Made by a program: the position numbers and the translations under genes. 64,000 nt of DNA from Conchocele bisecta (Eukaryota; Mollusca; Bivalvia; Lucinida; Thyasiridae). Of the stretch, positions 5,962 to 47,850 are shown one piece after another. Below the pieces are notes generated by a model that was not told the origin of the DNA, searched no databases, and saw only the letters and a list, made by a program, of their open reading frames with translations. The stretch lies in the NCBI GenBank assembly GCA_029237695.1, contig CM055273.1, forward strand, positions 55,417,968 through 55,481,967, read 5' to 3'. Numbering within the stretch: position 1 is the first letter of the stretch; every line of letters begins with the position of its first letter.

Positions 5962-6315
5962 TACGTAGCCCCGCAGGGGACGTAGATTTTTTTTTTTATT
6001 AATTCGTTCCCACGAAATAACAATTCGTTCCTTCAATTTAACGAATTAACAATTCGTTCCCACAATTTAACAATTCGTCGGAACGAATTGTTATATAGTG
6101 GGAACGAATTGTTAATTCGAGGGAACGAATTGTTAAATTGAGGGAGCAAATTTTCTTTTCGTGGGAACGAATTTTTAAATCGATGGAACGAATTGTTATA
6201 TCGTGGGAACGAATTGTTAATTCGAGGGAACGAATTGTTAAATTAAGGGAACGAATTGTTATTTCGTGGGAACGAATGAATACAAAAAAAAACGTGTCCC
6301 ATGTGGGGCTCCGTA
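5962..6315. mobile_element. Minisatellite foldback, type a, with 6-bp target duplication
   Basis: The left end TACGTAGCCCCGCAGGGGAC and right end GGGGCTCCGTA are inverted. TGAATG flanks both sides (5956-5961 and 6316-6321). Inside, a short arm of TTCGTTCCC-type units faces a longer inverted arm of 21-bp units such as GGGAACGAATTGTTAAATTG. Because 21 is divisible by three, both strands stay open as artificial repeat peptides; these are not genes. The arms could fold into a long hairpin. Related copies: 30921, 48664, 54047. Confidence 0.9.
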
Positions 6316-6558
6316 TGAATGACCTGGCTGGGTCATTCGAATCTCGGCGTTCTACAGCGCTGGAATGACGTTGCACAACAACTAAGACATTCTACAGTTC
6401 GTTTATCTGGTGGTATTATCTGATTATCATGAGTGTCTGCCGCCAAGTACATGTTATAGGTCGCTGAGCCTGGGTTTATTTTGTCGAATACACTTTCGCG
6501 TAGTTGTCGATGTTATTTTTGTTCTCGTGTTATACAAACCTCTTCACAATCGTATTAC

Positions 6559-6596
6559 TTGTCCAGTGTAACCTCTCTAAACCGGACACTCGAGAA
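6559..6596 (+). mobile_element. Pogo-like end fragment
   Basis: CAGTGTAACCTCTCTAAACC followed by GGACAC is one isolated arm of the pogo-like family. Confidence 0.55.
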
Positions 6597-6673
6597 AATG
6601 CAGATGTTTGCCTTAGATGTGTTTCGCTGTTATGTATCTCTGATTAGAATGACTTTTCAAGATTGCGAAACAC

Positions 6674-6961
6674 TATTTATCCCGTCAACACAGTGAAACA
6701 CCGTGCCATGAAACATTTTTGATTTCCTGTTAATCACTGCTTATGAACATGTGCGGTGGCTGGGGTTATTTGTATTGCATTGTAAAGCTATTTGTAGGTG
6801 TTGACGGGATAAATAGAATAGTAGGTTAGTGCCGTGAATGGGAAAAAATATCTGGCGCGGCACGGAAACGGGATGTGCTCGGCAGAGCCTCGCCCATCCC
6901 GTTTCCTGAGCCTTGCCATATATTTGTTCCCATTCACGGCACTAACCTACCATTCTCTATA
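6674..6961 (+). mobile_element. Two-module element (copy 1)
   Basis: Module 1 runs from TATCCCGTCAACACAGTG to GTGTTGACGGGATA. Module 2 follows at once: a palindrome from ATAGTAGGTTAGTGCCGTGA to its inverse, with a loop GGAAACGGGATGTGCTCGGC facing GAGCCTCGCCCATCCCG. The same fixed pairing recurs at 18719, 19410, 30008, 38737, 42290, 52801 and 53413, so both modules move as one unit. Confidence 0.8.
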
Positions 6962-6991
6962 ATGTGTCATGAAGTGCTCACATGTTTTATT

Positions 6992-7090
6992 TACAGTGGA
7001 ACATCTAAAAACCGGACACCCTGGGGGCCTCTCAGTGTCACATGTACTGGGGGCCTCCCAGGGTGTCCGGCTTGGAGAGGTTCCACTGTA
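6992..7090. mobile_element. Pogo-like palindrome with one internal spacer unit
   Basis: TA-bounded CAGTGGAACATC and GAGAGGTTCCACTG ends enclose one internal unit containing TGTCACATGTACTGGGGG. The sister copy at 8674 has several such units in tandem. Confidence 0.75.
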
Positions 7091-7124
7091 TATGTATTTT
7101 GCGAAACAACTACATTTGTGACAT

Positions 7125-7226
7125 ACAGTGGGGTCAGCGTGTAAGTGCACACACAAACGAACACGACAGGTTGGAACCAACCTGTCGTGTTCGTTCGTGT
7201 GTGCACTTACCCGCTGACCCCACCGT
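7125..7226. mobile_element. Near-perfect palindrome with TA-bounded CAGTGGGGTCAGCG ends
   Basis: Arms of about 48 bp run from CAGTGGGGTCAGCG inward to CGACAGGTTGG and back out. TA lies at each edge, as expected of a Tc1/mariner-type MITE. Confidence 0.75.
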
Positions 7227-7667
7227 ATCCTCAATCTACAATCGCTTTATTACAAAGATTTCATAAAATGGATTACACTAGTGTAATAAATATGCAAACT
7301 ACATACATAGAGGATATTCATATATTCGTTGCAAAAATATGAATATTCTATTTATTATATACCGCTCCATGGAAATTAGCAGTTTTTTAGACTGTATACG
7401 GTAATGGATGTGTATTTGCAGCCTATTTGCAGTCCGGCACTGCAGGTGCGCGTTATGAATATAGATAACGGAAGTAGTCGTATTTTCACCTGAATATGTT
7501 TATTTCATCGATGAGAACATATGACTTTTCATGGGTAGGTATATAATAAAATATGTTAGGTTATCAGTACAACTTAATAATGATGATGTGCTTATGCAAT
7601 ACATTAATATAACATTTATGTTGATTTCATATGTTATTTAATGCAATTAACTTTCCTTGTTGACAGA
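7227..7667. other. No gene recognised
   Basis: AT-rich sequence with no domain-bearing frame. It ends at the foldback remnant that starts near 7668. Confidence 0.4.
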
Positions 7668-7955
7668 TTTCATAAGAAAATTCAAGAAAAGAATTTGAAA
7701 ATTCAAGAAATTCAAGAAAATAACTTGAAAATTCAATAAAATATCTTGAAATCTTGAATATTTAAGTTCTTTTCTTGAATTTTCAAGATTTGTTCTTGAA
7801 TTTTCAAGAAAAGATCTTGAAAATTCAAGAAAAGATCTCGAAAATTCAAGAAAAGATCTCAAAAATTCAAGAAAGTATCTTGAAAATTCAAGAAAAGATC
7901 TCGTAAATTCAAGAAAAGATAAACAAAAGTGAAGTGGCCCTAATGGGCTTCCGTA
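7668..7955. mobile_element. Minisatellite foldback, type b, left end missing
   Basis: Inverted arms of 21-bp units such as TTCAAGAAAAGATCTTGAAA end in GGCCCTAATGGGCTTCCGTA at 7955. No matching left end is present, so this is a truncated copy. Full copies: 43254, 47358. Confidence 0.8.
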
Positions 7956-8061
7956 AGCATCCCCAATTTAACAGGTCATTGTTCATTTCTGACCATATTA
8001 TAGCACTTGTACTGATCACATAAATCCCGCAACCAGTTAACGTACTGCTGAAATTCAGCAG

Positions 8062-8260
8062 TACAGTAGAACCTGACTAAACCGGACACGCATTCAGTCT
8101 GTTTAGCCTTAATTGCCTGTGTGTATATTTAGGATGGTACTGTATAGTATGTTCAAGTTCGCAAAGCACAGCCGCATACCTTGGCATAGTCATATGTCTG
8201 ACTTGCAGTGAAACATCTCTAAACAGGACACCCTGTCCGGTTTAAAGAGGTTCCGCTGTA
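8062..8260. mobile_element. Pogo-like compound element
   Basis: The outer ends are CAGTAGAACCTGACTAAACC and GAGGTTCCGCTG. A third, internal CAGTGAAACATCTCTAAAC arm sits near 8206, so the right end is itself a small palindrome. This three-arm layout recurs throughout the window. Confidence 0.7.
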
Positions 8261-8496
8261 TTTTAACTGGTTGCAGGATTGCTGCATGTGTGCATGTGGT
8301 ATATTAGAACCTCTCTGAACCGGACACCCATACCATCGATTTCTGCTTAATTGTGTTTGGTTACCGTTGATAACGTCTATAAACTATTTTCATGCTGGGA
8401 ATTTTGTGGGCTATAAATAGTTCAAATATAGCAAATGACAATTCATTATATTTTCGTTAATTTCTCCTTATAAATGTCATGAATATGTCTTGGTAT

Positions 8497-8562
8497 TTCA
8501 TTAGAATTGTGTCCGGAGGAGGACACAATTCTAATGAAATTTCAAGACATATTTACAGAGGG
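8497..8562. repeat. Isolated central hairpin of the CAGAGCTCC hAT-like family
   Basis: TTGGTATTTCATTAGAATTG and its inverse surround a GGAGGA centre. The same hairpin is at the middle of the elements at 61090 and 63073. Confidence 0.65.
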
Positions 8563-8673
8563 AAATAAAACATATACTCTTAATTCGTTTGGCGGATATT
8601 TTCGCCGCTAGCATGCAAAGAGTTAATGATCGTAAACCACATATAACTGTTTTGCGGTGCCCATATGCCTGAT

Positions 8674-8852
8674 TTACAATGGAGCCCCTCTAAACCGGAC
8701 ACCCTGGGGACGTCCCAATGTCACATGTACTGGGGACCTCCCAGTGTCACATGTACTGGGGACCTCCCAGTGTCACATGTACTGGGGACCTCCCAGTGTC
8801 ACATGTACTGGGGACCTCCCAGGGTGTCCGGTTTAGAGGGGTTCCATTGTAT
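8674..8852. mobile_element. Pogo-like element with expanded internal tandem array
   Basis: TA-bounded ends CAATGGAGCCCCTCTAAACC and GAGGGGTTCCATTG enclose at least four copies of a 26-bp unit containing CCTCCCAGTGTCACATGTAC. The copy at 6992 has one unit, so the array has expanded or contracted since the copies diverged. Confidence 0.8.
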
Positions 8853-8951
8853 ATGTTCTAAAACGATCAGCACGTGAATTCACTTCTTAGAGTCGTTTCC
8901 CTGTCAAATTATCCTGTGCCGAGCCGAGGATAGAATTGCCGTACTATATTA

Positions 8952-9115
8952 TATGTGACTGTAAAAATGGGGCTTGTGGAGTTTGTGCCCAGTGTAGCTC
9001 CTGATCGAATAGCTCACCCCCATAGCAGGGGGCACAGGCTGATCTGGATATACACTGATCGCAAATCCCGTAAGCCCCATTTCTCCAGTCACAACCACTT
9101 ATCAAGATGTGGTTT
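8952..9115. mobile_element. TA-target MITE, TGTGGCTGTGACTGG family (copy 1)
   Basis: TGTGACTGTAAAAATGGGGC on the left faces GCCCCATTTCTCCAGTCACA on the right, with TA adjacent. Inner segments ATCTGGATATACACTGATCG and GGCACAGGCTGATC are shared with the other copies. Confidence 0.75.
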
Positions 9116-9189
9116 ATGTACAGCTTAGACACGAGTAAAAGAGTATTTATCTAAATATATAAATTCACCGCCTATTTGTACCTTCCATA

Positions 9190-9505
9190 TATATGAAACT
9201 ACGTACATGTAGTATAGTTACACTTGTACATGTACGGTGAATGACCCGATACATGTGAAATACTTTTCTATATTCAATGTTCATGGGTTTTGGTTTGTAC
9301 GCTGAGCACGCTTACTGTATGAAACTACGTAGTTTACGATCAATGTCCCGATAAAATTCGATGTTCGTATGTTGATGAAATTCAAATACCTATCTATAAT
9401 ATATGCAATTTCCATGTGTTTTTCTCTGTACACTGAGCACATTTAATATGAAACTACGCAGTATTCGGGCAATGGCCCAATACAATTTAATATGCGCTGT
9501 ATGCT
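9190..9505 (+). repeat. Tandem repeat, ~130-bp units, units 1-3
   Basis: ATGAAACTACG starts recur at 9190, 9319 and 9449, spacing 129-130 bp. Each unit contains a GCAATGGCCCGATA-like word and TGTACACTGAGCAC. The array continues at 9881-9905 and 15216-15335 after several insertions. Confidence 0.8.
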
Positions 9506-9506
9506 A

Positions 9507-9878
9507 CAGTGCAACCTCTCTACAACAGCCACCCATGGGAAGACGCAAAACTGGCTGTTGTAGAGAGGTGGCTGTTGTAGGGAGGTTAATGCTGAATTAA
9601 ATGTTGTCGTCCGCTGTTTATCTATTTTCTTCGATAATTTTCATCAAAAACATGCTTTGGCAACATTTTAGAATCATTTCCAATGGAAATGATTCTAAAA
9701 TGCTGTCAAAACATGTTTTTGTTGAGAAAGAAGGCAATAACAACAGCAGACGACAATTTTCGTGCTCATCAGTCTAAGGGTTAGATACAGAAGAAATCAT
9801 CCATTTGGGATATAAAACAGCGGCTGTTATAGAGTGGGTGTTGTTGTAGAGTGGTGGCCGTTCGGGGAGGTTCGACTG
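9507..9878. mobile_element. Pogo-like element with ACAACAGCCAC subterminal words, interrupted
   Basis: Ends CAGTGCAACCTCTCTACAAC and GGGGAGGTTCGACTG are flanked by TA (9505-9506, 9879-9880). It sits inside a tandem-repeat unit whose uninterrupted sequence is seen near 15264. A TTAA MITE is nested at 9590-9780. A related uninterrupted copy is at 39325. Confidence 0.75.
9590..9780. mobile_element. TTAA-target MITE, type 1 (copy 2), nested
   Basis: TTAA lies at 9586-9589. The left end has lost its CCCTTA start and begins TGCTGAATTAAATG; the right end is CAGTCTAAGGG followed by TTAG. Central AATCATTTCC / GGAAATGATT hairpin. Confidence 0.7.
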
Positions 9879-9935
9879 TATGTTCATGTGTTTTCGTTTG
9901 TACACTGGTAGTAGAGGATCTAAGCCCACAAAAAC

Positions 9936-10151
9936 CACAGGTTGAAGTAACGGACCGAGGTCTATAAATACATTACATATGCCTAAAAGCATCAATAAAT
10001 GAAGAAAAAAAAAGTTTTGTTTACCCCCTCCATCTAATCATTATAATGATTAGATGGAGGGGGTAAACAAATATTTTCTTTTCTTCATTTATTGATGCTT
10101 TTAGGCATATTTAATGTATTTATAGACCTCGGTCCGTTACTCCAACCTGTG
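9936..10151. mobile_element. hAT-type palindromic MITE with perfect 8-bp target duplication
   Basis: Ends CACAGGTTGAAGTAACGG and CCGTTACTCCAACCTGTG are inverted. ACAAAAAC occurs at 9928-9935 and 10152-10159. Arms of about 105 bp meet at a TCTAATCATTATAATGATTA centre. An 8-bp duplication and CA...TG ends fit hAT. It is nested in the left end of the 5-kb element. Confidence 0.9.
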
Positions 10152-11426
10152 ACAAAAACAAGGGTAGTGTGCACTTTGTGATACAAGTGTGAAATTTGGC
10201 ACAAATCAACTTTGATATATCCTATACCATAAAAGCCCAGGACACAAGCGATTTATCACCTTGAATCCAATATGGCCGCCAAAATTAAAGATGGCCGCCT
10301 AAATTATTAATATCCCTCTTTCTCATCTTCTAGAAGTGACAATGAGGCAGACTTTGTGTCTGTAGTATGGTTTTCAGGAATAAGGACACAGACTATATAT
10401 AGTAAATGTATTTTTAATGGCTTCTAATATTCAAAATGGCCATCAAAATCATATTATTCATATTGTTCAGCGACCTGTAGTGCCTATACATGTATGTGTT
10501 ATGATTTACTTTGGTTAAGTTCACTAACTATGTGCATTGGCAGATAATTGGCAGTTAGCTAGCTATCACAGTTCAAAATGGCCACCAAAATAATGACAGT
10601 TAAATATATATATACCTATGGTTGTGGTACAAGTAAATGGCACTATGTTTGAAATCAGTAAAATGGAAAACAAATTATTGTATTCAATCAAAAGATACAT
10701 TCTATATGAACACCATTATGGTATTATCACAATAGGGAACATACAGCTAACAAAATGTGATGTATTCCCCTAATGGGATAAGTAGCTTAGTTAGTTTAGA
10801 TTGCTTTATAATAGTTCCTGGCGCTAGATGCTCACATTATATATATAACTATACAAAATCATTGAATACCATAATTTAGTTTATACTTGAGTGGGGTCTG
10901 ATACCACAGCCATAGGTATATCTATTTAAGGCGAATGGTGTATCTAGTACAGATTGACATGCATGTATATATGCTGTCTATTTATGGTTTACAGCCAATG
11001 GAATGTGCATACTATTATGTGTGGTACAGTACATGTGAAATGTTGATAATATATGAGCAATGACATACACAACACAAATATGGGTCATTATTGTTCCAGG
11101 TCGTGTATACCAACATAAGTCAGCATATATGTGCAGTCTTGTCATGGTCTTCACTTCTTACAATCGAGTAGGCGAAACCCTGAACAGGCGATACGAAATC
11201 AATTTAGTTGCATGCCTATCTTGGTCTAAATAGGACAATAATATTTGCTTTTGTCAGGTCACTGCTCATAAAATATTAGTCGCTAAGCATTATGGTACCA
11301 CCTGGTTATATGTGTACTTATATACTATAACTGTATGTTGCATTACAGGGAAACTTGATGTCCATTATCATTATGGCGTAGTCACTCATGGCATTGGTGT
11401 TCTGCATGTAACCAGAATCTACCATC

Positions 11427-13560
11427 TTACTCGTGGCATCCGCCCTGACAAGTACACAGATTGGTACATGCCAATTCATTACGTTTGCATTTGCAGAGGC
11501 CTCTGCATGCCTTTTTGCATCCACATTTTATCAGCTCCTGGCACATCTTAGCTGATTCAGAACGAGATGTCCAGAATGGATGCCAGCCATCACCAATATC
11601 CTCCCATCCCCAATCTGCAGGCGTGGGAATGTCAGGGTCTTGGACAAGAGTTTGTCCCCAGACATAACCTCCTTGGTATATGGCCCGTTTGCAATGCTCT
11701 TGATGCTGCTTCTGTTGGCGGTATGTTGTCAATTGTTCTTGAACCTTGTGAGAACAATTGCTTCCTTGCACAGTTAACGTTACTCTGACCAGATGTTCTG
11801 CTGTACAAGAGCACCACGAATCGCTGAATGGTGTTGAAGCCATCAGCAGACATTTGCACAGGGTATTTGCAAGACTCATCAAAGTATCTGTCAACTGTGG
11901 AAGGACTTTCCATACAAACCAACATGATTTCTTCCCATGCCCAGCAAAGAAGGAGACTATATCACAGCCTGTGAGGCTGTGGAACATTGGCAATGCCTTT
12001 GCCTTCTGCGTACCAATATTTGATAATATGGTATGGGAACTAATGTACCTGAATGCTTTCCCAGTACCGAAAGCTACCCACAACTCTTCAAGATCTAGAC
12101 GACACAGGATTGACACAGCTAGCACAACAACGTCTGTGTCTGTTGTGCGGATAGTGCTTTTGGTGTGTCCCTGTTTCACACAATCAGCAATGTGAACCAT
12201 GATTCAAGAATCGGCCTCCTCATGGCTGCATGGTTATAGATGTGTGTCTAGTTCGGGATCAGAGCACATCACACTTGTGTCAGCTGTCGTTTCTAAGATA
12301 TTCTCGTGCTGCACCTCCTTGATTAAATACTCAGCAAGGAAGGAAAACAATTCAGCTTTGTTACTGTCCACCTGAAGGAAGGACTGCCAGTTCGAGGGAA
12401 TAGGTGCTGTAGCCAGAACATGTCTATGCTCACCTGTACCCCCCTTGTTCCGTGTGGATTTCTTAAGACTGTTTGCAATGTACCTATCCCAAACAATGTC
12501 CAGTCTCTGTACGTGTTTGATACGTCTCAGGATATATGGAGCGAATAAATCTGCTGCATATTCTTTGAATGTGTTTGGAACTCTGGTTCCATCCTTTTCT
12601 GGGGGGTGGGTAGCATATGTACAATGGCAGCACCATTAAGTACTTCTTCTTCAACTGTTGGTAACAGTGTTACATCTACCGCAACTCTGTCAGGGGTAGA
12701 CTAGTTGATTGTAGGACCATTACCAAGTCAGCCTTTGAGCCAGTACGCATCTCGCCAATGTATGTCAATGATTGGGGACATGCCTGGTTTTCATACTGAA
12801 AACAATCAGAAATATTACTATTACGTGACTGGCAGGCAATAAACAATCTGTTTGAGAGATGATATCTGGTTTTTGGTTTGGGTAAGTGTTTTCTTCGTAG
12901 GTGTTTTGAACAATGTAATCTTGTTCTTTGAAATGGTGTCTGTCATCGGTTTTGGACACATCAGTAATCTGCCAGTGACATACCCTTCATACTGTTTGTT
13001 GCCAATCTCCTCTACTGTTTGGACCTGTTGCACCACAGATTCATCCATCACTGATTCATCCATCACTACCTTTGTGTGAACGGCTATGAGCTCTGACCCA
13101 GGATAAAGAAATGGGTTATCAATTTCTTTCAGAACTTTCACCATCTCATTCACATTGCCTTTCAACTCGTCTTGGATGTATTTGGATTGTTCATGGTGCT
13201 TTGTGTCTCCTGTGCGGTTCGTGTTATCAAATTAATTGATAACTCGCGCGATTTCTGGTCCAGCGATCATCCATCTCAGGAGAGCACTTGGATTTTCTGT
13301 CAATCCAACAGCACCACCATCACCCTTTATAAGCAGATTCAGCTGCTCATGGTTGTGGTCCATTGCAATGGAAGAGAACTGATGGATGCTCTTCTGCAAT
13401 GTGAAGTGCCCTGACATGAACTCATGGTACACAGTGAAATGCCACAGATAATGGACGCACACCAGAACATCATAGCTAAATTTATACTGAACTCTGCAAG
13501 AGGGTTAAAATATACTGATATGAAGATATGTAAGTGCGCTTTTACGGCACGGAACATACG
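11427..13560 (-). pseudogene. Decayed transposon-borne gene: FEN/PIN-like nuclease signature plus CXC cysteine tail
   Basis: Reading the minus strand from about 13560, pieces of one protein recur in changing frames: FRAV; a LIKGDGGAVGLTENPSALLR block (13462-13232); an NPFLYPGSELIAVHTK block (13165-12821); GTRVPNTFKEYAADLFAPYI; NWQSFLQVD; PCSHEEAD. The longest open stretch, 12200-11427 (257 codons), has DTDVVVLAV at residues 21-29 and TGCDIVSFFAGHGKK near 77-91, then a C-terminal cluster rich in CxC pairs (about 225-255). The D-x-D-V and GCD...G-x-GK pattern resembles acidic and H3TH motifs of FEN/PIN nucleases; the tail resembles tesmin/TSO1-type CXC domains. In-frame stops are at 12204-12206 and 12234-12236, with frameshifts near 12600 and 12670. 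I recall similar proteins as repetitive families in cnidarians and molluscs. Enzymatic role is inferred. ATG 12200 is an internal Met, not the real start. Confidence 0.75.
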
Positions 13561-16642: not shown

Positions 16643-16740
16643 TCTCCAATCTGCAATTGCGGTGTGCCGACAGGCCACCTTTTCTGGTTGTCGCGCCAAC
16701 TGGCGGACAGCGCGATATAGTCGGAACTTTGCCGTATGTA

Positions 16741-17837
16741 CGAGGGGTCTTCATAAAATATCAGGACAAGTTCTGTAAAACCAATGTTTGTTAGGTTAAC
16801 TGTTGAAAATTCACATACATGATGATTGATAAATGCTGCAACTGATCATAAATATATCATGGACACTTCTATCGTTACCCACGCAACGTCATCACGCGAG
16901 ATGCGGCACAATGTCAAAATGACGTTATGTAAATGCTATGCTCCTCATTGTTGTGCATGCCCATGATTTTATTTCATGCTCGCACAAGGAGTTATTATTT
17001 TTCAAACTAAACACAACGGTACTGAATGCACTCCCGACAACAGAAAAGTCAATAAATGTACTTTTGTTGAAACATAGCACCTGACATACCGGCAGTAACA
17101 TTCTTGACTGCTGACGTCGCCGAAGTGGGTTCCCTGGTGAAGACATATTGGTACGATATATTGAACGTTTGACTCGATATAAAGACATACTGGTATAATA
17201 TATTGAACGTTTGACGCAATATTAAGACATAATGATATAATATATTTGCATTTTGACACGATATATACACATAATGAGCTCATATATTGACGTTAGTATT
17301 GCATAAAATACTTTATTGTCATATAAGACAGCCATGGCGTTCCATAACTGTCTATCCGACTATATATCTAGTAAATTGTCACCCATATTGTTCGCTTTCA
17401 CCATATACATCTCTCATCATCAACAACTCGTCTTGATTTATGCGTTTAGATGAACAATTTAATAGCAAATATTGGTTCTTCCAGTATGTTGTCATCGACA
17501 GAGCAGACAGTTGTTAAATTACGTCACATTTTTCACGTTAAATAATGTCGCTATTATTTCTTAAAATGTATATGACCCAACAACAAACACACGGAAACGC
17601 CAGCACTTCTCATTCAGCCTTCTTTCAAAAATATGCATACACAATTACGTTACTTGAGTCGCAATCCAAAGCATGACGTTACCATAGCAACTGCAAAACG
17701 AACCATAAACATTATGTTCATACTTTGTCTTGGGGAAATGGAAAACAATTGGCCAGGCTACAATATATCCAAGTTTGGTTGAAATGCGATAGAAGATGAC
17801 GATTGGACTTATCCGGGTATTTTATGAACACCCCTCG
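16741..17837. mobile_element. Mariner-like element of 1.1 kb without transposase
   Basis: The left end CGAGGGGTCTTCATAAAATA and the inverted right end CGAGGGGTGTTCATAAAATA match closely, with TA at 16739-16740 and 17838-17839. CGAGGGG...TTCA ends are typical of mariner. No D,D(D) transposase frame survives. A ~43-bp tandem repeat lies inside at 17130-17290. Confidence 0.85.
17130..17290 (+). repeat. Tandem repeat of ~43 bp inside the mariner-like element
   Basis: AAGACATACTGGTATAATAT-like units start near 17137, 17181, 17224 and 17266, about 3.5 diverging copies. Confidence 0.7.
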
Positions 17838-18196
17838 TACGTATGTGCGGTTAAAGTGTTTGGTTACAGTTTGCGGTATACGATCAAAGCCTCGGCGGAC
17901 GCGACATATGGGCCGCGGCCATCTAGTTTTGGTATTGTGATCCATTTGCATCGAGGTTCGCCGATGTTGGTGCTAGGAGGCGTTTTTGTCGTGCACTATA
18001 CCAGTATTGACACAGTCCGTGATGGAACGGAACAAGTGCATAAGAAACACACATTCGCAGTGTATACGTGTGTCCGGGAGTCGTGTTCGGCGATTAGCAT
18101 GGATCTCTTAACTTTGTCCTGTAATTTCAGGACAAGTTTTGCCGTATCAATTCGCATGGTCAGGATTAATAAGCCTTCACACCATATGTAACCTGG

Positions 18197-18436: not shown

Positions 18437-18571
18437 AGGTGTCCGGGTTTCTAGAATCGGTTGGCATACTAATAGAGTGTAGCTAACACTGTCGAAACTA
18501 GCTACCTCTTTCCTAACCATTTGTGCAGATGTACTTAGCTGTTCCCGAATTTAGATCAATAATTACTGCTA

Positions 18572-18718
18572 GCTCTAAATAATAGAGCTATCATTAAATA
18601 TTTAGAGCTAGCTCCGGATGATTTAGATAGCTCTTCAAATGATTTGGAGCTAACTCTAAATATTTAATGCTAGCTCTAATTATTTAGAGCTAGCATTAAG
18701 TATTGGAGTTTATGTAGA
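18572..18718. repeat. AGCTCTAAAT foldback repeat, partial copy
   Basis: Repeated ATTTAGAGCTAGC and GCTAGCTCTAAATA words at roughly 21-22-bp spacing end in GAGTTTATGTAGAT. Full copies are at 38042 and 38263. This one is cut off by the two-module element at 18719. Confidence 0.65.
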
Positions 18719-30920: not shown

Positions 30921-31193
30921 TACTACCACCGCAGGGGACATGGATTTCTTTCATTAATTTATTCCCACGAAATAACAATTCGTTCAATCAATTTAACAAT
31001 TCAATTCCCTCAATTTAACAATTCGTTCCCACGATTTAACAATTCGTTCCCGTGGGAACGAATTGTTATTTCGTGGGAACGAATTGTTAAATTGAGGGAA
31101 CGAATTGTTAATTCGTGGGAACGAATTGGTAAATTGAGGGAATGAATTGTTATTTCGTGGGAACGATTTCTACGTCCCCTGCGTGGCTCCGTA
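30921..31193. mobile_element. Minisatellite foldback, type a (copy 2)
   Basis: Degenerate left end TACTACCACCGCAGGGGACA and right end CCCCTGCGTGGCTCCGTA. Two inverted arms of 21-bp GGGAACGAATTGTTA-type units meet near 31049. No flanking 6-bp duplication is recognisable, unlike the other intact copies. Confidence 0.8.
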
Positions 31194-32082: not shown

Positions 32083-32227
32083 GTTGAATTTTCGAGATCT
32101 TTTCTTGAATTTTCAAGAATTCAAGAAAAGTTCTTGAAAAATCAAGAAAAGAACTTGAAAATTCAAGAAAACATCTTGAATAAATGGAAATTAAAAAAAA
32201 CTAAAATGGCCCTAATGGGCTTCCGTA
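32083..32227. mobile_element. Minisatellite foldback, type b, truncated
   Basis: A short pair of inverted TTCAAGAAAAG arms ends in GGCCCTAATGGGCTTCCGTA. The left end is absent. Confidence 0.75.
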
Positions 32228-38041: not shown

Positions 38042-38250
38042 CGCCAACTCTACATAAACTCAAATAATTTAGTGCTAGCTCTAAATACTTAGAGGTAGCA
38101 TCAATTATTTAGAGCTGGCTCCAAATCATTTGAAGAGCTCTCAAAATCAGTTGGAGCTAGCCCTAAATATGTAATGCTAGCTATAATTATTTAATTTAGA
38201 GCTTGCAATACTTATTTGAGTTTATGTAGATTTGGCGTTCCAGGAACATG
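38042..38250. mobile_element. AGCTCTAAAT foldback (copy 1 of a pair)
   Basis: Ends GGAACGCCAACTCTACATAA and ATGTAGATTTGGCGTTCC. The body is reiterated GCTAGCTCTAAATA / TATTTAGAGCTAGC words at about 21-22 bp. A 12-bp linker separates it from the next copy. Confidence 0.75.
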
Positions 38251-38262
38251 ATCACGTGGTTC

Positions 38263-38379
38263 CATGAACGCCAAATCTACATAAACTCAAACAATTAATA
38301 CTAGCTCTAACTATTTAATGCCAGCTCTACATATTTTATGCTAGCAATAATTATTTGAGTTTATGTAGATTTGGCGTTC
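38263..38379. mobile_element. AGCTCTAAAT foldback (copy 2 of a pair)
   Basis: Ends TGAACGCCAAATCTACATAA and ATGTAGATTTGGCGTTCA. A shorter body of the same repeat words. Confidence 0.75.
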
Positions 38380-39866: not shown

Positions 39867-39892
39867 ATTTCCGTCGGTAGAACACTCAATCG

Positions 39893-40175
39893 TATGGAAG
39901 CCCTGGAGGGACTTCCGACTTCTTTACTTCCGACTTCCGACTTCATCACTTCTGACTTCATTACTTCAGACTTCATCACTTCTGACTTGGAAGTAATGAA
40001 GTCGGAAGTCGGAAGTAATGAAGTCGGAAGTGATGAAGTCAGAAGTGATGGAGTCGGAAGTCAGAAGTAATGAAGTCGGAAGTAATGAAGTCAGAAGTGA
40101 TGAAGTTAGAAGTCGGAAGTAATGAAGTCGGAAGTCGGAAGTAAAGAAGTCGGAAGTCCCTCCAGGGCTTCCATA
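39893..40175. mobile_element. Minisatellite foldback, type c, with perfect 6-bp target duplication
   Basis: Ends TATGGAAGCCCTGGAGGGAC and its exact inverse. CAATCG lies at 39887-39892 and 40176-40181. The body is a short arm of TTCCGACTTCATTACTTC units and a long inverted arm of GAAGTAATGAAGTCG (15 bp) mixed with GAAGTCG. The ends match types a and b in pattern though the body is unrelated. Confidence 0.9.
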
Positions 40176-40376
40176 CAATCGTGATACCGTTTAGACAAAC
40201 ATATCATTACGAGAAACATGTCCGGAAAGTAGTTCAGCGTTAGGAAGCACGGTAACATTGACCTTAAAATTGCGGTTTATGTACACATTGCAGATCATTA
40301 CAAACGGCACTGTTCGAATAGTTCAGCCACGTGTTTTGAAAGTATGACACGTTGACACAACCTGGATATATATGAA

Positions 40377-40589: not shown

Positions 40590-40696
40590 TATACGTATGT
40601 TTTACCAAGAAAAGTCATTAAAAATATGCATACCGTCATACGTTCACAGAGTATATAAAAGTCTGGCGGTATCTAACTTTATTAACCAGACCAAAT

Positions 40697-41096: not shown

Positions 41097-41214
41097 CAAA
41101 TGCAATTCAGTAAACTGAACACACAGACAATATTATTGTGTTTCGTTGTGTCTGATTATAATGTATGTCCTTGATTGCAAAGGATTTCATTGCAGTGGTC
41201 ATATGCCTGAATTA

Positions 41215-41247
41215 CAGGCTGTCCGGTTTAGAGAGGTTCCACCATAG
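41215..41247 (+). mobile_element. Pogo-like end fragment
   Basis: A single arm, GTCCGGTTTAGAGAGGTTCC followed by ACCATA. Confidence 0.55.
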
Positions 41248-41597
41248 TTTAATTCCGTGTTTTTATTTCGTCTACTAGTCGACTGTTTTTGAGGGGAAAT
41301 TAATTCCTTTTTAGAACTTGGTCACCCCTGGCGCGAAGGTTCAACTCGCACCGAGTCGTTGTCAGTGGTTAGGAAGTGTAAACGTGCTTTCGGATGGACG
41401 AAAGGACGTCATTATCCTGACAAGTTCCGTTTAGTTGATAATGAAAGGAAGAGAATGTTATTTAATATCCGTAGTCGGCTTGATGTTTATTGATAGCTGT
41501 AGCATATGTTCCTTACAAAGTCAATGCCCTGTTGTATCAGTGGTATATATCTATATGTGATACAAGGTACCTTGTGATGTTTGATTCCGATGTCAGC
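41248..41597. other. No gene recognised
   Basis: No recognisable domain or paired repeats. Confidence 0.4.
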
Positions 41598-41827
41598 CTT
41601 AAACTTCGTACGACTAAAATGTTCGTAAGTGCAAATTTAGGATCGTTTGGAAATTTCAATTGATGAATTTACATTTATTGAGCATAGGCTGCATATGCAG
41701 CCTATGCTCAATAAATGTAAATCCAATAATTGTTTACAAGAAAACGTTGTTAATGTTGAATGTACAGACTATCATAATTTTGCACTTACGAACATTTTAG
41801 TCTTACGAAGTTTAGCGAAACGGCCCC
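41598..41827. mobile_element. GGCCGTTTCACTAAAC palindrome family (copy 5)
   Basis: The left end is eroded to CCTTAAACTTCGTACGAC; the right end is AGTTTAGCGAAACGGCCCCC. Central hairpin intact. Inverted relative to copy 2. Confidence 0.82.
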
Positions 41828-42238
41828 CTGCGCCGGCTGCTCTGGGCATGCACTGATCATTAATACGTCGCAAGGAAACAATATTAGAATCTGGTTTAAC
41901 AATGCGATCGTGTAGCATGATCAGCATCCATGCTGGTCGTCAAGTATCTTCAATCGGCTTTGTCGCTAGTGGCATATTTCATGAACCGACAGCTGAGAAA
42001 AGAGACATGGTGGCGTTTGTCACCAGCGTAGGTCCAGACCAGACTGCGCGTCAGTCTGATCAGGTTATACGATGTTTGCCATTCCACCACTGCAGTGTAT
42101 GACTATATATAGAATCGCAAGAAATAATTTCTAGCGCGATAAAACTGATCAACGTAGGAAACACTGATATTTCAAGTAAGCTACGTTCTGATGTGCAGTG
42201 ATATCTGACACGGAACGCTACATTGTACCTATAAGCTT

Positions 42239-42568
42239 AGAGCACGGTTCATCCGCGTGATCGAGGCTAATACGCGGTATGTATCAAGCCGTCAACACAG
42301 GGCGTATGTGCCGTGAAACACGGTGCCGTGAAACATTTTTAATATCCTGTCAATACTACCTAATCACTGCGTGATAAATAAAATAGTAGGTTAGTGCCGT
42401 GAATGGGAAAAATATCTAGTGCGGCACGGAAACGGGATGTGCTCGGCAGAACCTCATCCATCCCGTTTCCTAAGCCTTGCCAGATATTTTCCCCATTCAC
42501 GGCACTAACCTACTTTTCTCTATTTAGCGAGCGGAGTATCGATCGTACAGGCGGACAACCATACAATG
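42239..42568. mobile_element. CACGGTTCGTCCGC palindrome (copy 2), interrupted
   Basis: The left arm GAGCACGGTTCATCCGCGTG (42239) and right arm GATCGTACAGGCGGACAACC (42549) are separated by a two-module element at 42290-42524. The intact copy is at 31228. Confidence 0.65.
42290..42524 (+). mobile_element. Two-module element (copy 6), nested
   Basis: GCCGTCAACACAGGGCGTAT module, shortened, then the GTAGGTTAGTGCCGTGAATG palindrome ending CACTAACCTACTTTTCTCTA. Confidence 0.8.
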
Positions 42569-42585
42569 TTATTTACCCCACCCTT

Positions 42586-42770
42586 ATATGTGGCTGTGAC
42601 TGGACAACTGGGACTAATGAGGTTTTGCGACCAGTATAGATCCAGATCAGCCTGTGCATCTGCAGTCTGATCAAGATCTGCACTGTCCGCAATTCCATTT
42701 GCACCAGGACGATTACATAGTGAACAGTGTTGACCCTGATTACAATGAGTAGGTTGATTTGTGAGTAACA
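42586..42770. mobile_element. TA-target MITE, TGTGGCTGTGACTGG family, right end lost
   Basis: TATGTGGCTGTGACTGGACA then AGATCCAGATCAGCCTGTGC and TCTGATCAAGATCTGCACTG. The right inverted end is not found. Confidence 0.7.
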
Positions 42771-43213
42771 CCGGTCGTAAAATACCAATAAACCATTTTT
42801 GTCACGACGAGTTGATTCAAAACGACTTGTAGCATCGGCGGTCGACATGGTGATAGGATGGTATACTGTACTGTTTTACTTATATAGAAAACAAAAAAAC
42901 ACATTAATTTTTGTAGTCAATGTTTAATCACTAAACAATAACTACGTTTGTGTTCTTTTCTACATATCAACTCGTATATTACACCATTCTGTCACCATGC
43001 CGACGGTGTGTGGTTTGTAATTGGCGGGATTTTGTTTGGGATTATTTCATGTATATAGCATATGGGTAAAAACTGCATTTCCATATATAGATGCTGAATT
43101 ATGATAAGGTTACTGAAATATACTTATATTTAGTAAACAGAATGTATTTTACATGTTAAATGATTATAATTATTCAAACTTATTTGTCATGAAATAATAT
43201 AACATTTTGTAAG

Positions 43214-43910
43214 GCGCGCGATTATAAATATTTCCGATCACGCATCTCGTTCCTATGGAAGTCCATCAGGGCCACTTCACTTTTTTTTAATTTATTCAAG
43301 ATGTTTTCTTGAATTTTCAAGTTCTTTTCTTGAATTTTCAAGATCTTTTCTTGAATTTTGTTTTCAAGTTCTTTTCTTGAATTTTCAAGTTCTTTTCTTG
43401 AATTTTCAAGATCTTTTCTTGAATTTTCAAGATGTTTTCTTGAATTTTCTTTCTTGAATTTTCAAGATGTTTTCTTGAATTTTCAAGATCAAGAAAAGAT
43501 CTTGAAAATTCAAGAAAACATCTTGAAAATTCAAGAAAAGATCTCGAAAATTCAAGAAAAGATAAAAAAAAAAGTGAAGTGGCCCTAATGGGCTTGTACG
43601 TTCCCGCTCAGGCACAACCAATCCCCCATCTCGACCTCGCGTACACGCCCCGAGTACGTGTTCAGAAAGCTTTATAAGCGCGGGTCTAGCTCTTCGTGTT
43701 CTGTAATTTGGATATACTAATATAACATGTTGTATGACGCGCGATTATAAATATTTCCGATCACGCATCTCGTTCTAATGACCAAAGTCGGGAAGCGAGA
43801 TCAGCCGGTGCTGTGCTGTGCTCAGTCACGACCAATCACCCATCTCGACCTCGCGTACACATCCCGAGTACGTGCTCAGAAAGCTCTATAAGTGCGGGCC
43901 TAGCTCTTCG
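43214..43910 (+). repeat. Tandem duplication split by a foldback insertion
   Basis: Copy 1 is 43214-43253 plus 43599-43706; copy 2 is 43735-43910. Shared words are CGCGCGATTATAAATATTTC, CCGATCACGCATCTCGTT, CATCTCGACCTCGCGTACAC and CTATAAGTGCGGGCCTAGCT. Copy 2 lacks the foldback element and so acts as an empty site. Confidence 0.8.
43254..43598. mobile_element. Minisatellite foldback, type b, with 6-bp target duplication
   Basis: The left end TATGGAAGTCCATCAGGGCC and right end GGCCCTAATGGGCTTGTA. CGTTCC lies at 43248-43253 and 43599-43604. The inverted arms are 21-bp units alternating TTCAAGAAAAGATCTTGAAA and variants with GAAC or ACATC in the middle. Inserted into one copy of a local duplication. 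Confidence 0.9.
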
Positions 43911-44745
43911 ATGTCTGGAATGAGGATGGACTATCTATTCAATGACATAGTGAGAGAATTACGCAAATTAAAAGCTTGTTGTAAATATTTGCACAGTTTT
44001 GTAACACTATGCATATATACTCTGTTTTATTTCCCCATGTTGCATGTTATTCACTGTAATGGGATGTAAATAAAGATATGTTGAGTTGAGTTGATTTTGC
44101 TTCCTAACATTATGTAGCAGCAATGTAAGTTTGTACACACTCGGGTGAGTGGTATACAATCTGCTAATGTACTGTCGTCGTATTTCACTGTATATCGGAC
44201 ATGTAAGTACAAAGTGAAACTCATCTTCCAAGTCATTTGTACCACATAACAAACAGTATCTTAAATGACGATCTACTCTTTGATGACCATAACGTCCAGT
44301 TTCAATACGTAAATTATGTGCAGATAAACGTAATCTAGTCATGAACATGAATGCCCGTAACTTTTTGTTAGGAATCATATCCAAATACTTTTCATACTGA
44401 AATGTATTTTTGATATGTTTGTACAACACTAACACTCTATTTGTATCCATGTCATTGTGCCACTTTTGTACGAATGAGTCTACTAGTCTTTGTTTAAACA
44501 TACTAATAAATATCGTTGGTGTAACACGTTCAGGATCTTCCCACACATTACCAAAACCATACTCATACAACAACTGTTTTACGTCGGCTGTCCAGTTCAG
44601 CATACCGTTATTGCAGTCAATCAACGAACTAGTGTAGATCCTGCGCATTGCGAATTATCTGTATGTACGACATGTAACCAATATTTGATAATACGAACAT
44701 AGCGTGTGATATAAAGCGGAAATCTGGCGAGCTCACTATATTGTA
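43905..44745 (-). mobile_element. 5'-truncated LINE: C-terminal end of the reverse transcriptase ORF
   Basis: A 213-codon open stretch (44648-44007) holds KQRLVDSFVQKWHNDMD and a zinc-finger-like C-x2-C-x9-H-x4-C (CLLCGTNDLEDEFHFVLTC), as found after the RT domain in ORF2 of several non-LTR families. Upstream in another frame, ELARFPLYITRYVRIIKYWL (44730-44670) continues the protein, so a frameshift lies near 44655. Downstream, KLCKYLQQAFNLRN (about 43990-43945) is the usual C-terminal motif in a third frame. The RT catalytic region and endonuclease are absent. Dead fragment; clade not assigned. Confidence 0.8.
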
Positions 44746-44839
44746 TATGTATCTCAATTCGTTATCAGTAACTAGGAAACTAATATCAGTCGCTGTATGA
44801 GATTGATTGCGTATGTGAATTGTCGGACTTTGATGACCA

Positions 44840-45074
44840 GGGGGTCGTTTCACTAAACGTATTACGACTAAAATGTTCGTAAGTGCAAATTTAGGATCGC
44901 CTGGAAATATCAATTGATGTATTTACATTTATTGAGCATAGGCTGCTTATGCAGCCTATGCTCAATAAATGTAAATCCAATAATTGTTTACAAGAAAACA
45001 GTGTTAATGTGAAACTTACAGACTATCATAATTTTGCACTTACGAACATTTTAGTCGTACAAAGTTTAGTGAAA
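44840..45074. mobile_element. GGCCGTTTCACTAAAC palindrome family (copy 6)
   Basis: Starts GGGGGTCGTTTCACTAAACG, ends AGTTTAGTGAAACGGGCCCC. The centre is AGGCTGCTTATGCAGCCT. Confidence 0.85.
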
Positions 45075-45121
45075 CGGGCCCCAGACGGTATTTGCGATGT
45101 CTTCGGTGTATGTGGGTGTGC

Positions 45122-45240
45122 CTGTGGCTGTGACTGGAAAAATGTATTCAGATCAGCCTGTGCATCTGCACAGTCTGATCACGATCTGCACTGGTCGCCA
45201 TTACTTCAATGAAACACACGTCATGCTTCAAACAAGCAAT
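45122..45240. mobile_element. TA-target MITE, TGTGGCTGTGACTGG family, right end lost
   Basis: TGTGGCTGTGACTGGAAAAA, then CAGCCTGTGCATCTGCACAG and TTCAATGAAACACACGTCAT. Confidence 0.65.
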
Positions 45241-45247
45241 ATTATAA

Positions 45248-45302
45248 GTTGACGAACTGTTCATAGCGAATTTATTTCCGCATTTGCTGTGAACAGTTCA
45301 TC
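45248..45302. repeat. Hairpin with GAACTGTTCA arms
   Basis: GACGAACTGTTCATAGCGAA pairs imperfectly with TTGCTGTGAACAGTTCATC. Confidence 0.55.
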
Positions 45303-45404
45303 CACTTTCTACATAAACTTTGTAAATATTTTCACGGAATATCGCATATCTGCTTAGGTACAAAATCACATGACTTGCCTCATACTAGACACGCCATGGT
45401 AAAT

Positions 45405-45531
45405 GGAGTCAAAAGTTGACATCAATTTCAGAGTACATGCGGAATTATATTACTCTGTGAAAATGTATACATTTATATTTTGTTAACTAATTGATGGAGT
45501 ACTCTGAAATTTTTTTTAACTTTTGACGCCA
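45405..45531. mobile_element. Small palindrome with GGAGTCAAAAGTTGAC arms
   Basis: ATGGAGTCAAAAGTTGACAT to CAGAGTAC pairs with GTACTCTGAAATTTTTTTTA to TTTTGACGCCAT. A third direct copy of GTACTCTGAAAATTTTGTAA follows at 45533. Confidence 0.6.
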
Positions 45532-45886
45532 TTGTACTCTGAAAATTTTGTAAACTTTTGACTTTATTTACGGTTGTAAACGTATTTCATGAAATTACGC
45601 AGATGCCTGAAGGTACAAAATCGCATGGCGTGTCTCTGCTATTATTACAATGAAGTGGATAACAATTGCATGTCGCTGTGACTGTTCTATAAATAGTTAA
45701 GTCGTCTAGTCGTATTAATGCGTATAGTAAACGCACCGACTGTACTCGTAGTAAATAATATTTTCATGATAACGTATTGACAACAAACTCACACAGTTGG
45801 TAGTTATTTTTGTAAATAGTCTCATGTTACCAGTACTATAGGACGCATTTGTATGTGTACATAAAACTACTGCTGAGGTCAATTAA

Positions 45887-46109
45887 CCCATTAAAGACGG
45901 GCTACCATTATAGCAGTATGAAACCTTTATGAGAAACAGTTCCTTATTTTCTTTATATCATCTCGAATGTATATGGTGTTACCACTCGTTTGAACCATCT
46001 CGACGAGACGGTTCAAATTAGTGGTAACATCATATACCTTCATGTAGAAATAAACAAAATAATGAGATTTATTTTTACAAAAATTATCGTATCCTTAGAC
46101 TGAAATGGG
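45887..46109. mobile_element. TTAA-target MITE, type 2
   Basis: TTAA at 45883-45886 and 46110-46113 with ends CCCATTAAAGACG and CTGAAATGGG. The central hairpin TTTGAACCATCTCGACGAGA is shared with the fragment at 53283. Confidence 0.82.
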
Positions 46110-46113
46110 TTAA

Positions 46114-46686
46114 GACGTCAGGAAAATCGGTCAGATTGTAAACAGTAAACAGTAAGGAATACGAGAGTTATATCTCGGTTACAGCATTACATCATCGACA
46201 TGTCCATGAAGATCGACATAATTAGTTCCCATGAAGATATAATTAGTTTGTCCGTCCGTCCGTCCGTCCGTCCGTTTGTTTATTCATGTGTTCGTTCGCT
46301 CGTTTTCTCTTGTTGGAGGTGCTCTATGCGTCAGGCGGCATAACAGTGCGTGTTCATTGTTCATGGAACAGTAACATTTGAGTCAGCTTTTTAACAGCCA
46401 ACAGCATACATTTACAGCATGCACAGCACACATTTATCAATCGAGATATATACCTTGGAATGTGTATTGCTTAATATATTGTAGATATACATTTTTCTTA
46501 TTTTCGCCAGTATTTTCACAAGTGAAGTCACCGAACTCACGGTCAAAATCCGACGTCTTTCATTGTTCCAGTTTAAACCCATACCAGCTTGCCATTCATC
46601 TATAATAATTCGCTATTCGGTTAGCAAACTGTCTGTTGAACATTGAGCAATAACTAAAATGCATGTAGTATCTGATTCCACCAGTA
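46114..46686. other. No gene; TCCG microsatellite
   Basis: A (TCCG)n tract of about six units lies at 46251-46275. The remainder shows no recognisable feature. Confidence 0.5.
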
Positions 46687-46752
46687 TGCAAGGTAACCAG
46701 GATCTACACCGATCACAAATGTGTGATCGGTGTAGATCCTGATTGCCTTGCA
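46687..46752. repeat. 66-bp hairpin
   Basis: TGCAAGGTAACCAGGATCTA pairs with TAGATCCTGATTGCCTTGCA; the centre is GATCACAAATGTGTGATC. Confidence 0.7.
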
Positions 46753-47064
46753 CAAGGCAGTACATCTATTTCGTCTGGTCGTGGTCAATATCGTTTTTTT
46801 TGGACGCTTGGTGATTGCTCACCAATCTCCGACTGAGTGGAAATTGTTTCGTTGTGGTGGATGGAATAGCAATGACGAATGACGTATTGATTGGCTAATT
46901 CTGGGTGGGAAATTATTTAACTGTGCCTTAACAAACGGGGCGTACAGTATCCGTGGCCAGACTAGCTGCCGAGTTGGTGGCGTACTCTCGAACGGTAAAA
47001 GTATGTCAACGCGAGCGAAATTGCGTGCCTGCAGCCAGATAACGGTACAGTAAAAACTGCTGTA

Positions 47065-47168
47065 TGTTTTTAAATCATGAACAGACATCATCGTCAGAGT
47101 AAAATGACAATGAGACCCACGAGAGTGTTTTTTCTTAGTGTTCCGTTTAGAGAGGGTCTACTACTGTA
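47065..47168 (+). mobile_element. Pogo-like element, right part only
   Basis: AATCATGAACAGACATCATC spacer, then GTTCCGTTTAGAGAGGGTCT and ACTACTGTA. The left palindrome is missing. Confidence 0.6.
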
Positions 47169-47199
47169 TATGATGTTTGTTAAAAAATCGACAGGTGTT

Positions 47200-47313
47200 T
47201 CACTGACGGAATGGCGAACAGTGAAGACCCTGATCAGACTGCGCGGATGCGCAGGCTGATCGGGGTCTACACTGGTCGCAAATACCTATGATCAACATTC
47301 CCCCAGCCACGTA
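47200..47313. mobile_element. TA-target MITE fragment, TGTGGCTGTGACTGG family
   Basis: AGACCCTGATCAGACTGCGC, GGGTCTACACTGGTCGCAAA and CCCCCAGCCACGTA are interior and right-end words of that family. Confidence 0.6.
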
Positions 47314-47357
47314 ATATTAGAGAGACAAGTCAACAATACGGCAGACACTCAGTCAAG

Positions 47358-47850
47358 TACGGAAGCCCATTAGGGTCGCTTCACTTTTTTTTATTTCCAT
47401 TTATTCAAGATCTTTTCTTGAATTTTCAAGATCTTTTCTTGAATGTTCAAGTTCTTTTCTTGAATTTTCGAGATATTTTCTTGAATTTTCAAGATGTTTT
47501 CTTGATGTTTTCTTGAATTTTCAAGTTCTTTTCTTGAATTTTCGAGATCTTTTCTTGAATTGTCAAGAATTCTGCATGTACTCTGTATGCGAGAAAGTAT
47601 CTTGAAAATTCAAGAAAAGATCTTGAAAATTCAAGAAAAGAACTTGAAAATTGAAAATTCAAGAAAAGAACTTGAAAATTCAAGAAAATATCTTGAAAAT
47701 TCGAGAAAAGAACTTGAAGATTCAAGAAAAGATCTTGAAAATTCAAGAAAGTATCTTGAAAATTCAATAAAAGATCTCGAAAATTCAAGAAAAGATCTTG
47801 AATGAATGGAAAACAAAAAAGAAGCGAAGTGGCCCTAATGGGCTTCCGTA
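47358..47850. mobile_element. Minisatellite foldback, type b, longest copy, with 6-bp target duplication
   Basis: Left end TACGGAAGCCCATTAGGGTC, right end GGCCCTAATGGGCTTCCGTA. GTCAAG lies at 47352-47357 and 47851-47856. Each arm has roughly nine or ten 21-bp TTCAAGAAAAGATCTTGAAA units. A short non-repeat island (GCATGTACTCTGTATGCGAG) interrupts near 47575. The ORFs seen here are repeat peptides only. Confidence 0.92.

What the first reader, a model, noticed from the sequence alone, without database searches (positions are those of the whole stretch)
5962..47850. A superfamily of foldback elements that keep their ends but have different minisatellite bodies
Seen: three repeat types with no body similarity share (1) ends TA(C/T)GGA(A)GCCC, (2) a short palindromic word just inside (CCCCGCAGGGG, GCCCATTAGGGC, CCCTGGAGGG), and (3) two inverted arms of short tandem units. 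Exact 6-bp flanking duplications occur at 5962-6315 (TGAATG), 39893-40175 (CAATCG), 43254-43598 (CGTTCC) and 47358-47850 (GTCAAG), and a 5/6 match at 54047-54383. Known: Drosophila FB elements also have arms of tandem subrepeats, but their ends and duplications differ. Inference: one transposase recognises only the ~11-bp end and the bodies are free to be replaced and amplified. From memory, a 6-bp duplication and TAY-type ends would point to IS3EU or Dada; this needs checking.
Basis: partly seen in the sequence, partly recalled or inferred. Interest (0 to 1): 0.9.

Follow-up and report, generated by a model that had tools for sequence, protein, structure and literature searches.

The report
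Foldback transposons with lineage-specific repeat arms
Short hairpin-like mobile elements in what is likely a marine invertebrate's genome share one DNA end and a 6-base insertion footprint, and transposase genes elsewhere in the same genome sit behind the same kind of end and repeat arm, so the arms are likely part of the transposon's own machinery and not random filler.

Summary
The window has nine copies of three short elements (A, B, C) with ends like TAYGGA(A)GCCC and arms of tandem units. Of six copies with both ends, four have exact 6-bp duplications, one 5/6, one none. In the 1.89-Gb genome the end word occurs 7,947 times against 349 for its reversed control. Of 80 fetched loci, 36 are another repeat with a constant flank, 22 have paired ends (14 exact 6-bp, two 5/6, six neither) and 22 no pair. 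Ends and duplication match published IS3EU. A transposase search gave 137 matches; in 18 of 30 loci held, the gene lies behind an inward TACGGA(A)GC end and a short-unit array whose type goes with the transposase lineage. One copy has B's end and 21-bp unit; another lineage is close to A. The IS3EU guess is supported. 'One transposase, freely replaced bodies' is not: the foldbacks look like internal deletions of transposons already carrying these arms. That the arms bind transposase is inferred; some lineages share a CGTN4ACG core.

The parts
5962..6315 (.). A1 foldback element; flanks TGAATG/TGAATG (5956-5961, 6316-6321); arms 6012-6075 and 6080-6277
30921..31193 (.). A2 element, both ends recognisable, left end degraded (TACTACCACC), no 6-bp duplication; arms 30973-31051 and 31051-31166
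48664..48938 (.). A3 element, left end TAAGGAGCCCCGCAGGGG, right end lost; arms 48703-48858 and 48861-48938
54047..54383 (.). A4 element, flanks GTCGTG/GTCATG (5/6); arms 54083-54198 and 54201-54337
7674..7955 (.). B1, left end lost (start taken from the tandem array); right end GGGCTTCCGTA at 7945-7955
32121..32227 (.). B2, left end lost (start taken from the tandem array); right end GGGCTTCCGTA at 32217-32227
43254..43598 (.). B3 foldback element, flanks CGTTCC/CGTTCC; 21-bp unit arms 43295-43490 and 43485-43571; right end lacks 2 bp
47358..47850 (.). B4 foldback element, flanks GTCAAG/GTCAAG; arms 47404-47568 and 47594-47802
39893..40175 (.). C1 foldback element, flanks CAATCG/CAATCG; arms 39910-39988 and 39989-40158, periods 15, 22 and 52

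Best explanation
These are likely non-autonomous IS3EU-type cut-and-paste transposons that arose by loss of the inner gene from parents which already carried tandem-repeat arms, and which would be moved by transposases made elsewhere in the genome. Shown: the shared end, the 6-bp duplication, the tandem arms, and transposase genes behind the same end plus lineage-specific arrays, one with B's end and unit and one lineage close to A. Inferred: mobilisation in trans; internal deletion as the origin; that each lineage's transposase binds its own array (a conserved core of about 10-13 bp, often two helical turns apart) while cleavage needs the conserved end of about 22 bp; and that arms grow, shrink and diverge by slippage or unequal exchange, sometimes taking in the end itself (L018).
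For: Four exact and one 5/6 6-bp duplications of six two-ended window copies. Genome word count 7,947 against 349 for the reversed control. Of 80 fetched loci, 22 paired, 14 exact (13 plus L018's outer pair), two 5/6. PMC12730594: IS3EU, 6-bp TSD, TAYGG..CCRTA (passages); PMC10045372: TA..TA termini, TSD usually 6 bp (passages). Open 285-aa frame behind a G end: Pfam rva_4 E=7e-25; NCBIfam best hits IS481 and IS3, both far below curated cut-off. Of 14 aligned members rva_4 matches 14, rve 4, HTH_21 1; D137 and E229 invariant, D196 in 13 of 14, missing in the B copy. 137 genome matches, a lower bound; 18 of 30 held loci have the inward end 0.13-0.93 kb before the gene match, and a tandem array follows in 18 of 18, short or decayed in L108 and L114. 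B copy L104: B end plus 26.6 copies of TTCAAGATCTTTTCTTGAATT. Nine labels need eight changes on the tree, the minimum; 0 of 200 shuffles as low. Core CGTN4ACG at 13.8-41.8 per kb in A, A', J, M, G arms against 27 in the whole 64-kb window, 20 of those in the four A copies.
Against: No element with both ends, matching duplication and a transposase was seen at ordinary size; the one such pair (G) is 172.85 kb apart, mostly unread, with 500 N. The B transposase copy lacks the second catalytic aspartate. Copies within an arm type are near-identical, so the tree test is weak; label C rests on an array in L125 without its end, and label M for L117 mainly on lineage. 12 of 30 transposase loci showed no such end in the right place within the about 1.5 kb held. 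Dyad symmetry of units I chose reaches uncorrected p<0.06 in A, B, G, H, J, K, M but not in A', C, E, F, nor in A's alternative unit (p about 1), and pairing within families is no better than shuffled (0.581 against 0.585). Six of 22 paired loci lack the duplication, L050 despite two perfect B ends. 22 of 80 loci have no partner in the stretch fetched. No parent for A itself (only sister type A'), E or F, and for C only an array, was seen among the 30 loci held. CGTN4ACG is absent from B, C, F, H and K.
Confidence: 0.75

Rival explanations
1. One reading: one transposase recognises only the short end, and unrelated minisatellite bodies are captured and swapped between a common pair of ends.
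For: The same kind of end sits on ten different bodies (A, A', B, C, E, F, G, H, J, K); L016 shows B ends around a large foreign insert with an exact 6-bp duplication, so cargo is tolerated.
Against: Arm types go with transposase lineages, and the B body is found on a B-ended transposase copy. Several bodies share the CGTN4ACG core.
Confidence: 0.15
2. The arrays are passive: ordinary minisatellites that expand near transposon ends because inverted repeats promote slippage, with no binding role.
For: Unequal arms, internal end copies in L018 and no within-family pair covariation fit neutral turnover.
Against: Arrays lie next to the end in 18 of 18 gene-bearing loci with an end; conservation inside units is uneven (B half-sites 0.945, loop 0.80, tail 0.77, units picked at 6 mismatches or fewer); 21-22-bp spacing recurs in A, A', B, H, J, K.
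Confidence: 0.3
3. Another 6-bp-duplicating superfamily (Dada, or a Polinton/Maverick-related or hAT6 lineage) supplies the transposase.
For: 6-bp duplications are not unique to IS3EU (PMC10045372 lists Polinton; PMC12730594 mentions hAT6; passages).
Against: The genes found behind these ends are rva_4 and IS3/IS481-like, and TAYGG..CCRTA are published IS3EU ends. No Rfam match at gathering scores in the window for a Dada-like RNA-gene target (Dada habit recalled).
Confidence: 0.06

Closest known systems
IS3EU / GingerRoot superfamily
   Same: TA..TA ends, TAYGG..CCRTA, 6-bp duplication, IS3/IS481-like DDE transposase (PMC12730594, PMC10045372, passages)
   Different: Passages seen describe TIRs longer than 30 bp, not tandem arms or foldbacks; no direct comparison with a named IS3EU transposase was possible
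Galileo (P superfamily, Drosophila)
   Same: Long inverted ends with internal tandem repeats; those repeats contain transposase-binding sites (PMC3688188, abstract and passages)
   Different: THAP-domain P-type transposase; another duplication length (recalled)
Tetris / DAIBAM (D. virilis)
   Same: Tetris is a foldback with tandem repeats in its inverted ends; it shares ends and likely a mobiliser with DAIBAM; its repeats resemble part of the end (PMC4079207, passages)
   Different: About 220-bp repeats, 8-10-bp duplications, suggested Mutator superfamily, autonomous copy not found
Drosophila FB and sea urchin TU foldbacks
   Same: Inverted arms made of short tandem subrepeats (recalled; sea urchin foldbacks are cited in PMC4079207)
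   Different: Duplication length, ends and transposase differ (recalled)

Membership tests
IS3EU/GingerRoot | 6-bp target site duplication | tested here: met
   4 exact + 1 five-of-six of 6 window copies; 14 exact + 2 five-of-six of 22 paired genome loci
IS3EU/GingerRoot | TAYGG..CCRTA (TA..TA) ends | tested here: met
   definition from PMC12730594 and PMC10045372
IS3EU/GingerRoot | IS3/IS481-like DDE transposase in autonomous members | tested here: met
   rva_4 14 of 14, rve 4 of 14, HTH_21 1 of 14; NCBIfam IS481 and IS3 are best hits, below cut-off. Met for the gene-bearing relatives; the window copies have none
IS3EU/GingerRoot | transposase clusters with named IS3EU sequences | not testable with these tools
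   no named IS3EU protein was available here
IS3EU/GingerRoot | TIR longer than 30 bp (reported for rust-fungus families) | tested here: inconclusive
   conserved end of about 22 bp, then arms of inverted tandem units
Foldback structural class | inverted arms of tandem subrepeats | tested here: met
   (window copies), L095/L096 both arms; only one arm was seen at most transposase loci
Drosophila FB family | FB ends and duplication length | tested here: not met
   6-bp duplication and TAYGG ends here; FB values are recalled
Dada | insertion into small RNA genes; Dada transposase | tested here: inconclusive
   no Rfam match in the window; transposases found are IS3/IS481-like; Dada features recalled

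The most novel reading that the evidence does not exclude
A whole radiation of IS3EU transposons runs on a two-part code: an end shared by all lineages for cutting, and a lineage-specific array of dyad sites at two-helical-turn spacing for recognition. The array rewrites itself as each transposase's DNA-binding domain diverges, and foldbacks are the array stripped of its gene. The same ends may also bracket very large units (15.2 kb seen with an exact AGTTCC duplication; a 172.85-kb pair with exact CTATAA).
Probability: 0.35. Interest if true: 0.78.

Novelty: new variant of a known kind. Interest (0 to 1): 0.64.

Why it matters
Many foldback elements lack a known mobiliser (Tetris is one), and passages of PMC4079207 say most seem to belong to Mutator, with exceptions. 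This ties a large foldback group to IS3EU-type transposases and supplies gene-bearing relatives with the same arms. It gives a natural series in which one end is held nearly constant while the repeat arms change with the transposase, so the old question of what foldback arms are for can be tested by swapping domains and arrays. It also offers a route by which transposons seed dispersed minisatellites. In the open-licence library only one paper held both 'foldback' and 'IS3EU', an oyster satellite survey with one mention of foldback; Repbase was not searched.

Tried and rejected
Chance or artefact: rejected by the 6-bp specificity and genome counts. Taking all end-word hits as elements: rejected, since 36 of 80 loci belong to another repeat with a TCAATG-like flank, L015 and L032 share a TACCTC flank, and L068, L069 and L072 have B-like ends with near-constant ACCTCC/AGCTCC flanks. 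Pair covariation inside units: tested, not supported. Candidate elements at 56079-56585, 49110-49605 and 61718-62068: their 6-bp flanks are palindromic and I read them as part of longer inverted repeats. Five viral contigs patterns gave nothing. The prokaryote pattern gave six bacterial or archaeal contigs that I took as chance and did not follow. Protein search with the B ORF found nothing. PDB sequence searches gave nothing or one hit at E=0.37. Transposase core in the window: no hit that I could not read as arm translation or unrelated repeat.
Full report
OBSERVATION. The four exact 6-bp flanking duplications and the 5/6 case were reproduced, and among widths 3-9 only 6 matches well at these borders. 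Four more copies were added, one A with both ends, one truncated A and two truncated B, making nine. Of the six with both ends, four have an exact duplication, one 5/6 and one (30921-31193) none. The word TAYGGAAGCCC occurs six times exactly in the window, both strands counted, against a mean of 0.05 in 40 simulated windows, and each of the six is at an element border.

ENDS. Aligned inward, by reading, the ends start TAYGGA(A)GC, then a few free bases, then AGGKGMCA-like letters. In C the inner half (GGGACTTCC) is an inverted near-copy of the outer end (GGAAGCCC) and resembles the ACTTCC arm units, so C's arms may have grown from the end itself; no statistic was made. PMC4079207 reports a similar origin for Tetris repeats (passages).

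GENOME TEST. The window lies in a 1.89-Gb assembly. The end word occurs 7,947 times against 349 for the reversed word. The answer listed the first 100 places, all on contig C1; I fetched 80 loci covering 99 of them, grouping neighbouring hits, and missed one (C1:34190341). By one rule (partner in the fetched stretch, mostly about 1.5 kb, at most 3 kb away, 4 edits or fewer in 18 nt), 22 loci have a pair, 36 are another repeat recognised by its TCAATG-like flank or body, and 22 have none. An 8.8-kb inverted pair in L015 falls outside the rule and has no direct duplication. Of the 22 pairs, 14 have an exact 6-bp duplication (13 plus the outer pair of L018), two have 5/6, and six do not match (L025, L033, L035, L050, L061, L080), although L050 and L080 have near-perfect B ends. 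In the swapped-flank control the mean was 0.52 exact matches (maximum 4 of 25 rows), about what rows drawing their own flank would give.

MORE BODIES. The sample added E (L017, 14/21-bp units and a gene-like interior), F (L018, 49-bp units with extra copies of the end inside the arms and a nested Tc1-like gene, by reading) and G. L016 has B ends around a large insert rich in a 444-bp repeat, with an exact CAAGTA duplication.

TRANSPOSASE. Two G ends at C1:30776623 and C1:30791827 lie 15,205 bp apart with AGTTCC on both sides, carry arms of a 52-53-bp unit, and the sequence between shows no transposase core. Another G end at C1:33972341 lies about 0.84 kb from an open 285-aa frame with an integrase core (rva_4, 7e-25) and best NCBIfam hits IS481 and IS3, both under the curated cut-off. 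The frame may be only the first exon (my reading of its end). Its outer flank matches a G end 172.85 kb away (CTATAA both sides, by reading); most of the stretch between was not read and the part read has 500 N, so whether this is one unit is open. A protein search gave 137 matches, a lower bound. Of the 30 loci held, 18 have an inward TACGGA(A)GC end before the gene, and in 18 of these 18 a short-unit array follows. The loose end pattern used also hits inside some genes. The other 12 loci show no such end in the right place within about 1.5 kb.

ARMS GO WITH LINEAGES. G: 52-bp unit with ATCTCGTAATTACGAGAT. H: CTGGCGGCCGCCACATAATAT. A': TCCGTTCCCACGATTTACTAA behind TACGGAGCCCCGGAGGGGACATGG, close to window A. 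B: the window B end and unit. J: TCGTTCCCACGAGATAGCATC. K: TATCTTGAGGGAACAAGATAA. On a tree of 28 transposase rows nine labels (one of them 'none', 8 rows) need eight changes, the minimum; two of the 30 loci gave no usable frame. Copies within a label are close, so this is weak as a test. The B row is a long branch, the C label (L125) has an array but no end in view, and M is labelled from L118's array.

WHAT THE ARMS MIGHT DO. Units show a conserved core and a looser linker. Dyad symmetry of unit strings that I chose is above shuffled (uncorrected p<0.04) in A, B, G, J, K and M, borderline in H (0.056), and not in A', C, E, F or A's alternative unit. Pairing inside families is not better than shuffled. 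CGTN4ACG recurs at 38.3, 41.8, 38.8 and 13.8 per kb in A', J, M and G (about 0.7-0.9 per unit) and 15.9 in A; the whole window has 27, of which 20 are in the four A copies. It is absent from B, C, F, H and K; K has the looser YGTN4ACR at 21.2 per kb. A, A', B, H, J and K repeat at 21-22 bp, about two helical turns. Together with Galileo, where tandem repeats in the inverted ends bind the transposase (PMC3688188, abstract and passages), a binding-array role is the best inference. No binding was tested, and HTH_21 was matched in one of 14 members only.

BEYOND THIS GENOME. A protein-database search with the open frame of A4 gave 10 proteins of 486 candidates. By reading, 8 of 10 carry an end-like stretch: six right (P0121, P0122, P0123, P0124, P0126, P0130) and three left (P0122, P0127, P0129). 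Back-translation suggests a TACRAAAGCCCTGAAGGGACATGG-like end (inferred). Sources are unnamed contigs. The B frame found nothing. The A4 frame is open because 21 bp is seven codons.

VERDICT. Likely IS3EU-type foldbacks with gene-bearing relatives that carry the same arms. Novelty is a new variant: an IS3EU foldback radiation with lineage-specific arms. In the library one paper held both 'foldback' and 'IS3EU', and none of the 35 titles in the IS3EU listing is about this. Repbase itself was not searched.

Noticed in passing
L018 (G000:C1:20186900-20189400): F element whose arms contain several internal copies of the transposon end itself, so inner ends could serve as alternative borders; a Tc1/mariner-like gene is nested inside (my reading).
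   Followed up: partly
G000:C1:33799491 and 33972341 (L097, L098): Two inward-facing G ends 172.85 kb apart with the same 6-bp flank CTATAA; either a giant unit, a nested arrangement or chance.
   Followed up: partly
L107, L109, L110: The transposase open frame runs in frame back into the repeat arm (in L110 into the end itself), since 21 bp keeps the reading frame; it may be accidental.
   Followed up: no
L017 (G000:C1:1511900-1513400): E element interior has exon-like pieces (MATSEDEDEEYQ followed by a possible splice donor) inside AT-rich 14/21-bp arms (my reading).
   Followed up: no
L117, L118: An A-like right end with the same flank GTTTTC sits just before the transposase in both, as if an A-like element had inserted in their common ancestor.
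   Followed up: no
16739-17839: 1.1-kb sequence with ends TACGAGGGGTNTTCATAAAATA and exact CGTATG on both sides; could be mariner-like with TA duplication or another 6-bp duplicator.
   Followed up: partly
18568-18694 and 38059-38356: Other dispersed arrays of about 20-bp GCTAGCTCTAAATATTTA units; at 38 kb they are flanked by inverted GGCGTTC..CTACATAAACTCAAA-like ends, perhaps another foldback family.
   Followed up: no
11427-12203 (-): ORF of a widespread uncharacterised protein (157 matches, 120 listed; named hits in Mytilus, Porites, Chionoecetes, Merluccius), without Pfam match.
   Followed up: partly
G000:C1 sample (36 of 80 loci): An unrelated abundant repeat TCAATGTATGGAAGCCCAAACTTGTTAGAA contains the end word and inflates simple counts.
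   Followed up: yes
PMC8268682, Table 1 (passage): Oyster satellites CgiSat35 and CgiSat47 are annotated DNA/IS3EU, hinting that IS3EU elements feed tandem repeats in bivalves too.
   Followed up: no
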